DNA from: Clavelina lepadiformis
Taxonomy: Eukaryota > Chordata > Ascidiacea > Aplousobranchia > Clavelinidae
Direction of reading: 5' to 3'
NCBI RefSeq assembly: GCF_947623445.1
Contig: NC_135244.1
Location: forward strand, 14,012,860-14,076,859
Length of the DNA: 64,000 nucleotides
Shown: positions 40,001 to 44,429 of the stretch, piece after piece
How positions within the stretch are numbered: position 1 is the first letter of the stretch
How the letters are laid out: each line of letters opens with the position of its first letter
The notes under the pieces: model-generated
The model's input: the letters and a program-made list of their open reading frames with translations, nothing else
Told to the model about the DNA's origin: nothing
The model's database searches: none
Position numbers and translations under genes: made by a program

Positions 40001-43000
40001 AGAGTATTGAGTCAGTAGCCTATTTCACTTATGATACCCGTAACTACGAAGCAATCTTTAAAAAGCCAAACACTTTTGAAAATAATGTCCATTGCTATAT
40101 ATTCCTGTCACTAAACCAAAGTTTTCCTTCACATAATACATTAACAGCTTGTTGCTAACAGGAAAGAGGAAAGCTGTTTTTGCAGACTTATGAATAATAT
40201 TAGGATTTAAACTACTTTGTAGCTTAACGATTTGCATTTGGCTTTAGAATAAACAAAAACTTTTAATTCTGAATATGTAACATATATGTAAAAGGTTTTT
40301 CTGAATAATTAGGTATTTGTATGTGATATTTTGAAATGTATCTTACGTGCCTCTTTGGCTATCAACTGTGCCTTAGTTAAAGATGATAAGATAAAAACTG
40401 TGTATATTTAGCGAAAATGCCAAAGTTTAAAAATGTGTATAATGTATAATATTGTAAGTGACTTTATGTTTATTTTGTTGTTTAATAAGCTTTGTTTTGA
40501 ATCATGGAGCGTGTTGTACTATTTGATATTCATTACTGTTGCTGGTACATTTTAAGGTGAAATGTATGAAATGATGTATCTAAGCAGTGAAGCTACCTGT
40601 TTTAAAAGCATTTTTACTACTTTTACGTTAAATATAGACATATCTGTTTGCTAATCTGTGTTACCAGTAGTTTTATTTCTTGTTTGTTTACGTGGTTCCA
40701 TTTTACTAGATGTTTGTCTTTCTGTAATTGAAACATAAAGGAGGTGTATGGCCGTATGGGTTTGAAAAAAGGGCCAATTACTTTGTTTGTTTCTTTAATT
40801 CAGTAAAATTAGTAAACATTCAATAATTTGAAAATCGCGATATTGGACTCGATAAAAGTTTACATGTAGACTATGCATGTCTAAAACTATCTTATACTTG
40901 AATATGAAATAATCCAAATATCAATTCACTACCTTTTGAATGGTTCAAGTAAGTTTTTAAAGGCATGCATAGGTAAGAGTCTGACAAAATCAGAGAAATC
41001 TGAATGTTTTACCCATGCACCTCCTTAAAGAGTCTAATATGTTGTGTAGATTGTGCATTTAGTTATCACAGGATGTTGTATAAACGCAGTTTATCTAAAA
41101 GATAAGCAAAGGTACTCAGGATACATGCTTTATGATTCCAAAACTTTTGGAACCTTGCATTAGCTTTGATATTTTTACAATTAGAATTTTGTTTGTAAAA
41201 TTAATTGTTAAGGTATTGCAAGTCAACACCAAATTACATTATTTTGTCATGGCTGTGTTGAAGCAGATTATAATATTTATTTATAAGACCCAAAAGTGCA
41301 CGCACAAACAGAGGTAAAAATCGTTACTTTGTTGTAATAGGGATGTTACCCATCTTTTGCCTATAGTTTAGCAAGCAGTAGATTTTAATAAATAGGCTTG
41401 AGTATCACTGCTTGATATCTGTATAGCATGTATACGCAAAATTTTTCTTCTATTCCAGTAAATAATTTTCAATGACATCCAGGCATTGTAAACCTTTTTA
41501 ACTGGAGTATATTGCAAATTTTCAAGATTTAAAATTCTATTTTGTTTACCCTGTCCAATACATAAAAAGTAGTCTTGTATATGTGTATATTTTATTAATG
41601 GTTGGTGCTGTGTAAAATTGTGTTATCTATACTTTAATGTAATGATAATTGGTTCTGCTTTGAAATAATTTTTATCTTCTGAAACAAAAAATATGTTACA
41701 CTTTTGCTTGGTTTATGTGTAGTAATTTGAGAAACTTTTTGTAGAAATGATGCCAAAAACTTTCCTTGTTAATATGTTTCCTAATAGTAAATGTAATAAA
41801 TTTATACATTAGCCACAACTCAGCCTATATTCATGTTTTAAATATAATTTCAGTGGAGTTGGTCAGTGGCTAAAATTACAGAAGTTCCGCCTGTTGCTTT
41901 TCTGCCAAATTTTATTGTCCAGAGAAGAGTTTTGTATCCATTTCGCTTACAAACTGGTGGGAGTATTCTTGCAGGAGATTTAGCAATGAAATTTGGATGG
42001 GCAATAAATATTGGTGGAGGGTTTCATCACTGTTCAAAACACAATGGTGGTGGATTTTGTGCATATGCTGATATTACACTTCTAATAAAGGTAGGACAAA
42101 ATTTTATCATTGACAGCTATAGTCGACTGTGGACTAGTTTACAGATATTAAATCCATCTCTGATGTTTAATTGTTCATTTCAACAAACTTGGCTTTAACA
42201 CCGTTATTTTATCAATAATTTGAATGCATTCATAAATTTATTAACTTGAAGGCATTTGTCAGTTTCCTGTTCTCTTACTACCACTTTTAGTTTGCCATGG
42301 AAAACTCTGGTGTATCTAATGTAATGATAACACTGGACAACAATTTACAACTTATTTTTTATTCCTCGCTCATTTCAAGTTTACCTAGACTAATTTTGCA
42401 ATGCTGAATCCAAATCTGGTCTTAGATTTTTTCTAACACGTCACGTTTTTGAGATATGATATATGCTCACGACAACCCATAACTGTGATTTTGGCTAATT
42501 TTGGCTGAGCGGAACAAAACATTACATGTAATCAACCCAGTAATTTCTATTGAAAATAACAGCATTATCATACTGCACAATTTAACACAACCCAGGATAA
42601 TTAAATCAGACAAAAATAACATTATATTCCCTCAAAAGTGCTTTATACACTTGCTCTTTCGAGTATGTTCAGTGTCAGTTTCACGCTGAAGAAACCAGCA
42701 GTAGTCCCCCATCATGTTTGGGTTAAATCGACCTCTATACCGCGATTCCATCACAGAGATGTCTTGGTGAAATCTTTCCCCATGCTCGTCGCTCACATCA
42801 CCCAGGTTTGGCGGGAAAAATTCCAAGTGTGAATGAAGAAAATGCAGTTTAACCGACATTCTGCAGCCCATTTCGCGGTATGATTCCAGCAAATTGTCCA
42901 CTAGTTCCGAGTAATTTTCTGCCCTGTACTTCCCAAGAAAATTTTGTACAATCTGTACAAATGCATTCCAGGCTTTTAATTCAATTGAATTAAGCTTGGA

Positions 43001-44429
43001 TGGAAATACTGGGTCACGGATCAAATCACGTATTTGGGGGCCAACAAATATTCCAGCTCTCAGTTTAGCATCACTTGGTATTGCACCAAATTTTTCTTTT
43101 ATATGCAGGAATCCATCTCCATTGAAATCCATTGCCTTCACAAATTGTTTGATCAGGCCCATTTTAATGTGAAGTGGTGGCAAGTACACTTTGCTCGGAT
43201 CAATTAGGGGTTGGCACTTAACATTATATCTTCCAACAATGTAGTCCGTTCTCATTGGCCATTCAGTTGTGTCATAGTGGTTTGCATCGTCTCGACTGTC
43301 CCACAAACAGAGAAAGCACATATGCTTGGTGTAACCCAACTGCAATCCGAGCAAAAGTGACACAACTTTAAGGTCTCCACATATGTTCCCCCCCCTCTAT
43401 AGTCATGGCCAAGAACATTCAAGAATGCATTAATTGTGAAAAGATAGAACATTGCATTTACAAAATAATGTCAATATTAATCTTACATAACATGCATTGT
43501 GACATAATATGACCAACAATTCGCTGGGAAAGAAAATTGCACAATACCTTGTACTGTAGAACCTTATAATATAGTGCTAATCAATGCAAAATCCGAATTT
43601 CGTGAATTTTCATATCTTGAAAACCTGACGTGATAGACCAATTCTGATTTCAGATTTGGAATCAGCGTCCCAAAGTTAGTCTAGGCAGTTTATTTTCATT
43701 TGAGGAATAATTTTGCTGTTGTCCAGTGTAATCGATTTGGATGCACATCAAGGCAATGGTTATGCACGTGATTTTATGGATTATGAAAATGTCTACATTT
43801 TGGATGTTTTTAACAGAAATATATATCCTCATGATGGCTATGCAAAAACTGCCATTAAAAGGTAGTTGAAGTTTCTGGTTTCAGTAGAGTCTAAGATGCT
43901 TTGTGGTAATTAAGCATGACTATTTCGATGACAATACGTTCCTATATTTACACATAGGAAAGTTGAACTTCGTTCTTATGTAAGTGATGTGGAATATTTG
44001 CAACTGGTTGAGCAACATACCTCAGAAGCTCTTGCTGAGTTTAATCCAGATTTAATAGTGTATAATGCAGGTACCGATATCTTGGATGGTGATCCTCTAG
44101 GCTGCCTCAGCATTTCACCCACAGTAAGTTATAGATCAATTCAAAACTGCAAGTAAGTAAATTCTTGCAGGCAGTCTTGAATAATTAATCATGTTGTAAT
44201 CATGAATGGCTATTTGAATATAAAAAGTTATATACATCTTTGGCATAAGCATTTCTACAATGTTTTACTGCAGGGAATTATTAAAAGAGACCATTTGGTG
44301 TTTTCATGTGCAAGAAAGAAAAATATTCCTATCGTCATGCTCACTTCAGGAGGTTACCAGCGAACCACGGCTCGTATTATTGCTGACTCCATTCTTTCTT
44401 TGCACAGTGATGGTTTAATACCCAGATAA
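37004..44429 (+). CDS. HDAC11: Histone deacetylase 11, exon 4 split by a transposon
   Basis: HDAC11 is the class IV zinc deacylase. Coding exons: 37004-37148, 39562-39662, 41854-42090, 42291-42330 plus 43732-43861 (one exon broken by the element 42331-43728), 43958-44123, 44274-44429. With the TAA duplication counted once the frame is exact (975 nt, 324 aa; human about 347). Motifs follow the family: WPILYHKDYNISFFGMEKMHPFD, GGGFHHC (catalytic His pair at 42025-42030), DLDAHQGNG (zinc ligands at 43740-43748), NAGTDIL (ligand Asp at 44076), SGGY (44355). The ATG at 37004 follows an acceptor-like TTTATGCAG and matches the human N-terminal length; an in-frame ATG at 36962 is the alternative. Read straight through, translation enters the element and stops at 42405-42407, before the zinc site. 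This haplotype would therefore give no active enzyme unless the insert is removed. Confidence 0.93.
38303..38782. mobile_element. hAT-type element in HDAC11 intron 1, 480 bp
   Basis: The ends CATAAGTGGGCAATACC and the complement of CAGAGTTGGGCAGTC are imperfectly matched. Flanking 8-mers GTAATATG (38295-38302) and GTAATATT (38783-38790) differ at one position. The interior is packed with GGTACT/AGTACC words. It belongs with the element at 54393-54775. Confidence 0.8.
42331..43728 (-). mobile_element. CACTR-ended transposon inserted in HDAC11 exon 4, 1398 bp
   Basis: The ends are CACTGGACAACA and TGTTGTCCAGTG, a perfect 12-bp inverted repeat. Similarity continues imperfectly inward for about 150 bp with shared words (TATTCCTC, CCTAGACTAA, GCTGATTCC, CACGTCA). 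The target duplication is TAA (42328-42330 and 43729-43731). CACTR ends with a 3-bp duplication are typical of the CACTA/EnSpm group. A TAA duplication alone would also fit PIF/Harbinger. The element encodes one protein on the minus strand (42632-43363 plus decayed upstream sequence). Confidence 0.88.
42632..43363 (-). CDS. Transposon-encoded protein of an uncharacterised family (C-terminal part)
   Basis: The open frame has 243 residues from the first Met. The homologous frame continues upstream through an ICGDLKVVS-type stretch to an in-frame TAG beside an eight-G run near 43390, where a frameshift is likely. Visible motifs: CFLCLWDSRDD (Cys-x2-Cys), YLPPLHIKMGLIKQFVKAM, GPQIR, and [12 protein letters not shown]. 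The same series occurs in the copy at 51233-51772. Proteins of this type are familiar as repeated uncharacterised predictions in invertebrate genomes. The pairing of a D, a C-x2-C, an H and a D/E-rich block recalls the RNase-H-fold transposases of CACTA-type elements, but this is inference. Its lone position between matched terminal repeats supports a transposon protein rather than a host gene. Confidence 0.75.
   Translation of the reverse strand: MSLLLGLQLGYTKHMCFLCLWDSRDDANHYDTTEWPMRTDYIVGRYNVKCQPLIDPSKVYLPPLHIKMGLIKQFVKAMDFNGDGFLHIKEKFGAIPSDAKLRAGIFVGPQIRDLIRDPVFPSKLNSIELKAWNAFVQIVQNFLGKYRAENYSELVDNLLESYREMGCRMSVKLHFLHSHLEFFPPNLGDVSDEHGERFHQDISVMESRYRGRFNPNMMGDYCWFLQRETDTEHTRKSKCIKHF

What the first reader, a model, noticed from the sequence alone, without database searches (positions are those of the whole stretch)
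42291..43861. Transposon splits a catalytic exon of HDAC11 with the ancestral frame still readable
HDAC11 exon 4 is recognisable on both sides of a 1398-bp element: an FAMENSGVSNVM-type stretch ends at 42330, and IDLDAHQGNG resumes at 43731. Counting the TAA duplication once gives a perfect frame across all six exons (975 nt). Both exon halves still match the family well, so the insertion looks recent or heterozygous. No in-frame GT/AG pair removes it: the GT at 42321 joined to the CAG ending at 43726 shifts frame. Reading through meets TGA at 42405. The sequenced allele therefore seems null for a conserved deacylase, or is rescued in an unknown way.
Basis: partly seen in the sequence, partly recalled or inferred. 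Interest (0 to 1): 0.88.

Follow-up and report, generated by a model that had tools for sequence, protein, structure and literature searches.

The report
Young transposon inside sea squirt HDAC11
In the sequenced sea squirt a very young jumping-gene copy cuts one exon of the HDAC11 enzyme gene just before its metal-binding motif, but a public protein record tied to the same chromosome is intact, so the break is most likely a variant carried by some animals only.

Summary
A 1398-bp DNA transposon (42331-43728), flanked by a duplicated TAA, sits inside HDAC11 exon 4, just 5' of IDLDAH. Counting TAA once, the six exons give a clean 975-nt frame. HDAC11 matched one place only in this assembly, by scaffold lengths Clavelina lepadiformis kaClaLepa1.1. 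The element is a non-autonomous Chapaev3-type copy: CAC/GTG ends, A-TWA-T target, Chapaev motifs, relative with RAG1-like fold. Against 12 other copies it has 2 private substitutions in 1398 bp, so it looks very young.

In-frame GT-AG pairs exist, e.g. 42310/43704, though chance supplies such pairs often. And a database protein named as Clavelina HDAC11, on a contig of exactly this chromosome's length, equals the empty-site protein; the only four cuts that give it, with the other exons fixed, are non-canonical. Best reading: a polymorphic, probably loss-of-function insertion, with empty alleles transcribed in other animals. Removal from mRNA (SOS-splicing-like) or cryptic splicing is not excluded. 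An ordinary kind of event with a cheap decisive test.

The parts
37004..37148 (+). HDAC11 exon 1 from the inner ATG (an in-frame ATG at 36962 adds 14 aa, used by database protein P0001)
39562..39662 (+). HDAC11 exon 2
41854..42090 (+). HDAC11 exon 3, with the GGGFHHC stretch
42291..42330 (+). HDAC11 exon 4, first part, ending in the left TAA
42328..42330 (+). target-site duplication TAA, left copy, preceded by A
42331..43728 (-). non-autonomous Chapaev3-type DNA transposon, 1398 bp; its transposase remnant is on the minus strand
42331..42459 (.). left terminal inverted repeat; outer 12 bases exact, about 69% identical to the right one overall
43610..43728 (.). right terminal inverted repeat
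42632..43396 (-). 254-aa open remnant of the C-terminal part of the transposase (C(2)C, LH, H(4)H motifs)
43729..43731 (+). target-site duplication TAA, right copy, followed by T
43732..43861 (+). HDAC11 exon 4, second part, IDLDAHQGNG (zinc-ligand motif; role recalled)
43958..44123 (+). HDAC11 exon 5
44274..44429 (+). HDAC11 exon 6 with stop codon
42310..43704 (+). candidate cryptic GT-AG intron (1395 nt) that would remove the element in frame, changing VSNVMI to IILLLSSV before IDLDAH
   Evidence: weak sites on a recalled generic matrix; chance level

Best explanation
A non-autonomous Chapaev3-type transposon jumped very recently into an A-TAA-T site in exon 4 of the only HDAC11 gene found in this assembly. 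On this allele translation should stop at 42405 after 199 aa (213 aa from the upper ATG), before the second half of the zinc site, or the mRNA should be degraded (inference). The insertion is most likely polymorphic: empty alleles exist in other animals, or on the second haplotype of this one, and make normal HDAC11, and the database protein of this locus reflects their transcripts. Shown: insertion, duplication, frame, few private substitutions, single place, identity of the database protein to the empty-site product. Inferred: polymorphism, loss of function, and that transcripts stand behind the database protein.
For: Exact TAA duplication and clean frame. 2 window-private substitutions in 1398 bases against the majority of 12 other copies, i.e. 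0.14% as an upper bound since insertion; for scale, synonymous diversity is 1.54% in the ascidian Ciona intestinalis A (PMC3623758, Table 2, passage seen). HDAC11 is well kept: P0001 shares 117 of 119 columns that are invariant in 11 relatives, within the range of the other members. P0001, named 'histone deacetylase 11-like isoform X2 [Clavelina lepadiformis]', lies on a contig of 24617235 bases, the length of C5, and equals the empty-site protein plus 14 N-terminal residues. DNA came from specimen kaClaLepa1 and RNA from kaClaLepa9 (PMC10884593).
Against: No reads, no second haplotype and no other individual could be examined. I did not see the evidence behind P0001; a protein-guided gene model could also bridge the element. 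The 12 comparison copies were mostly picked as close ones (7 are the top matches, which scored 40 of 309 candidates). The differences may predate the insertion. Diversity in Clavelina itself is not known to me.
Confidence: 0.75

Rival explanations
1. SOS-splicing-like rescue: the element's inverted repeats form a hairpin in the mRNA, the element is cut out by a spliceosome-independent route and the ends are joined by RTCB, healing the HDAC11 message from the inserted allele.
For: The join implied by P0001 removes 1401 nt (element plus one TAA), and the four boundary pairs that give it (TA-TG, AA-GT, AC-TA, CA-AA) are non-canonical. The predicted RNA fold pairs the two element ends, 42331-42342 with 43717-43728. 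The genome holds matches to CAAP1 (61.9 bits, cut-off 25) and RtcB (best piece 151.2 bits, cut-off 27). SOS splicing of transposon-bearing animal mRNAs with ligation by RTCB is described in a review (PMC13247085, passages seen).
Against: An empty allele gives exactly the same join and needs no special chemistry. That SOS joins are often imprecise, and that CAAP1 and AKAP17A take part, is recalled; the passages seen do not name them and the primary paper was not held. RtcB is general; AKAP17A was not looked for.
Confidence: 0.09
2. Cryptic spliceosomal rescue: GT at 42310 and AG at 43704 remove the element in frame, giving ...MENSG-IILLLSSV-IDLDAHQGNG, possibly still active.
For: In frame and stop-free over the whole coding sequence. 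The residues before IDLDAH (SSV) resemble those of other HDAC11 proteins at the same place (e.g. ATI in P0045).
Against: On a recalled generic matrix both sites (-0.2, -0.7) score below the gene's own donors (0.7 to 4.6) and acceptors (1.0 to 4.7), and below the out-of-frame pair 42321/43726 (0.6, 2.2). Chance: 146 of 795 simulated forward insertions have an equally good in-frame pair, 679 of 795 have any. P0001 is not this product.
Confidence: 0.08
3. Fixed loss: HDAC11 is null throughout this population, and the database protein is a bridge made by a gene predictor from protein similarity.
For: The assembly holds one place only and it is broken. Other species' HDAC11 proteins could guide a model across the element (inference).
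Against: No frame damage elsewhere in the coding sequence and normal conservation, and few private substitutions in the element. The name 'isoform X2' suggests transcript-backed variants (inference).
Confidence: 0.07
4. Assembly artefact.
For: None found.
Against: A clean transposition signature with 3-bp duplication, as at 10 of 12 other copies; HiFi coverage is reported as 117-fold and QV as 67.4 (PMC10884593).
Confidence: 0.01

Closest known systems
Chapaev3 transposons (CMC / Transib-RAG1 clade), e.g. Merrow, Garfield, Conan
   Same: CAC...GTG ends, TWA duplication between A and T, C(2)C, LH and H(4)H motifs (PMC4079192 passages)
   Different: This copy lacks the N-terminal part of the transposase and the first strands of the RNase-H-like core; Repbase was not available, so no named family was matched
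HDAC11 (class IV histone deacetylase / lysine deacylase)
   Same: 60-63% identity to the 11 relatives aligned, 117 of 119 of their invariant columns kept
   Different: Exon 4 interrupted on the sequenced allele
SOS splicing of DNA transposons from animal mRNA
   Same: Inverted-repeat DNA transposon in an exon, non-canonical join in the database model, RtcB and CAAP1 matches in the genome
   Different: No RNA evidence here; an empty allele explains the same join

Membership tests
Chapaev3 transposon | 3-bp TWA target duplication between A and T | tested here: met
   Window copy A-TAA-T; of 13 copies 11 have an exact 3-bp duplication and 10 are A-TWA-T; L009 and L013 lack a 3-bp duplication and L011 has CTA. 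Of two longer relatives read at both ends, L028 has TTA on both sides, L026 does not show a 3-bp copy. Criterion from PMC4079192
[quoted passage not shown]
   CACTGGACAACA / TGTTGTCCAGTG
Chapaev3 transposon | transposase motifs C(2)C, LH, H(4)H | tested here: met
   CFLC, LH, HFLHSH in the window's 254-aa frame; in 42 aligned relatives 41, 40 (as PLH) and 41; loose patterns
Chapaev3 transposon | RNase-H-like DDE fold related to Transib/RAG1 | tested here: met
Chapaev3 transposon | groups with Chapaev3 transposases in a tree | not tested
   No reference Chapaev3 transposase sequence was at hand
HDAC11 | closest to HDAC11 rather than other HDACs | tested here: met
   Apart from P0001 the 119 other rows listed (of 2225) are 59-67% identical, and those with a telling name are nearly all HDAC11; the C1 and C7 HDAC loci match at 26% and 29%
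HDAC11 | Hist_deacetyl domain | tested here: met
   P0001: 196.4 bits, cut-off 27.9
HDAC11 | uninterrupted catalytic exon on this allele | tested here: not met
   Element at 42331-43728, stop at 42405
SOS splicing substrate | element absent from mRNA of an inserted allele | not testable with these tools
   No RNA reads available

The most novel reading that the evidence does not exclude
The intact HDAC11 protein on record comes from transcripts of the inserted allele itself: the young Chapaev3 hairpin is cut out of the mRNA by an SOS-splicing-like pathway, restoring the frame exactly. This would be a natural chordate case in a wild animal, visible already in a gene model that joins an exon at non-canonical transposon edges.
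Probability: 0.08. Interest if true: 0.75.

Novelty: new member of a known kind. Interest (0 to 1): 0.38.

Why it matters
Transposons landing in exons are a known source of null alleles. What is useful here is the pairing of a very young, precisely bounded insertion in a one-place conserved gene with a database protein equal to the empty-site product, through a join no spliceosome should make. That allows a clean test of three things at one locus: segregating loss of a deacylase, cryptic splicing, or transposon removal from mRNA. It also shows how a reference genome can carry a broken allele of a gene that the species probably still makes, which gene-loss surveys based on one assembly would misread.

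Tried and rejected
Second HDAC11 copy or unplaced haplotig: the HDAC11 flanks in the DNA query matched only here among the places scored (40 of 309 candidates scored), and P0001 gave HDAC11-level matches only here among 95 contigs. Other Hist_deacetyl matches lie on C1, C2, C3 and C7; which HDACs they are was not worked out.

Truncated HDAC11 of Clavelina in the protein collection: a search with the read-through form listed 120 of 827 hits; P0001 is the only row named Clavelina and the other rows are at most 67% identical. Shorter members hidden inside a cluster cannot be seen.

Naming the transposase by profile or sequence: no Pfam family for the window's 254-aa frame at E up to 1, none for relative P0220 at E up to 0.01; only chance-level matches (best E 0.62) in a solved-structure sequence search. 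It was classed by ends, duplication, motifs and fold instead.

Literature on gene predictors and non-canonical introns: PMC6310983 passages say that GNOMON-annotated plant genomes hold about 0.09% minor non-canonical sites; this does not tell what lies behind P0001. An ascidian insertion-polymorphism search gave one unrelated paper; a search on HDAC11 knockouts was not followed up. I made no search for papers on HDAC11 in Clavelina, so I claim nothing about what is in print on it.

Splice scores use recalled human-like frequencies, not Clavelina's own.

Full report
WHERE IT IS. The window is C5:14012860-14076859 of a 209.06-Mb genome in 95 contigs. C4 and C8 are 25070715 and 19509797 bases, exactly the scaffold N50 and N90 of Clavelina lepadiformis kaClaLepa1.1, and C5, C6 and C7 round to its chromosomes 5, 6 and 7 (24.62, 20.77, 20.45 Mb) (PMC10884593, two of three parts of the text read). 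C1 and C3 are a few kb shorter than printed and the whole is 209.06 against 210.1 Mb in 102 scaffolds, so the held copy is not quite complete. The species is thus an inference, backed by a protein named for it on a contig of exactly C5's length.

THE OBSERVATION. HDAC11 has six exons here with GT-AG boundaries. Exon 4 is split by 42331-43728, 1398 bp, with ends CACTGGACAACA and TGTTGTCCAGTG and TAA on both sides. Counting TAA once the exons give 975 nt and 324 residues; reading through gives a stop at 42405. The protein keeps 117 of 119 columns that are invariant in 11 relatives chosen from the hits; the other members keep 93.6 to 100% in the same leave-one-out count. Apart from the insertion I saw no sign of decay.

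WHAT THE ALLELE MAKES. Read-through yields 199 aa from the inner ATG (213 from the upper one) without the IDLDAH motif; two exon junctions follow, so decay of the message is expected (recalled rule). The best-scoring, 42310/43704, swaps VSNVMI for IILLLSSV. It is weak on a recalled generic matrix, and 146 of 795 simulated forward insertions (107 of 795 reversed) have a pair as good, while any such pair losing at most 30 nt a side occurs in 679 of 795 (477 reversed). The simulation runs on the spliced coding sequence, so it is only a yardstick.

THE DATABASE PROTEIN. P0001 (338 aa, sources ncbi and uniref, 8 member sequences) is identical to the empty-site product with 14 more N-terminal residues from the ATG at 36962. 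It sits on a 24617235-base contig, and HDAC11 has no other place in the assembly that I could find. With the other exon borders fixed, of all cuts tried (last exon base 42291-42419, first base 43200-43860) only four give this protein, each removing 1401 nt, with ends TA-TG, AA-GT, AC-TA or CA-AA. A model on this chromosome therefore seems to bridge the element exactly, at a join that is not spliceosomal. The simplest source is RNA from animals with an empty allele: DNA and RNA came from different specimens. I did not see that evidence; a protein-guided bridge or RNA-level removal could give the same record. GNOMON annotations do hold a few non-canonical introns (about 0.09% in plants, PMC6310983 passages); that P0001 is a GNOMON model is my assumption.

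RNA-LEVEL REMOVAL. SOS splicing - excision of transposons from animal mRNAs and ligation by RTCB - is described in a 2026 review (PMC13247085, passages); the primary paper was not held and a phrase search returned only that review. Conditions for it are present but not specific: a predicted fold pairing 42331-42342 with 43717-43728, and CAAP1 and RtcB matches in the genome (that CAAP1 belongs to the pathway is recalled). This is the most novel reading and is kept at 0.08.

VERDICT. A very young Chapaev3-type insertion in the one HDAC11 place of the assembly, probably segregating, probably null on the inserted allele. A known kind of event, well bounded and cheap to test. It is more than trivial because the public protein record and the genome disagree in a way that can separate polymorphism from RNA repair.

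Noticed in passing
window 42632-43396 (minus); protein P0124: The element's protein is 92% identical over 75% of its length to a hypothetical protein of the glass sponge Oopsacas minuta, more than vertical descent between sponge and tunicate would be expected to give: a candidate for horizontal transfer, as reported for other Chapaev3 families, or contamination.
   Followed up: no
window 50553-51772: A second, broken relative of the same transposase in two overlapping frames (50928-51236, 51161-51772), with a left end CACTGGTCGACA preceded by TAA at 50553; no matching right end found downstream to 54000.
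   Followed up: partly
window 44886-45372: Just downstream of HDAC11, a 471-bp element with CAGGGGTGGCCA-type ends (44894-45364) flanked by an 8-bp repeat CCCTAGAG: reads as a hAT-type miniature element (similar Buster ends appear in a PMC4298943 passage).
   Followed up: partly
window 56849-60190 (minus): A single open frame of 1113 aa with FERM domains, two kinase stretches and an SH2 match just below its cut-off: an apparently intronless JAK-like kinase gene.
   Followed up: no
window 25463-28282 (minus): A single open frame of 939 aa with 3'-5' exonuclease and Mut7-C domains, EXD3/mut-7-like (gene name recalled).
   Followed up: no
L009, L011, L013: Among the longer element copies, L009 and L013 lack a 3-bp duplication and L011 has CTA, hinting at rearranged or less strict insertions.
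   Followed up: no
window about 43388-43400 and the same place in 7 other short copies: The short copies have a C-rich tract of varying length where the longer copies carry about 240 bp of transposase sequence: an unusual internal-deletion scar that seems to have expanded or shrunk.
   Followed up: partly
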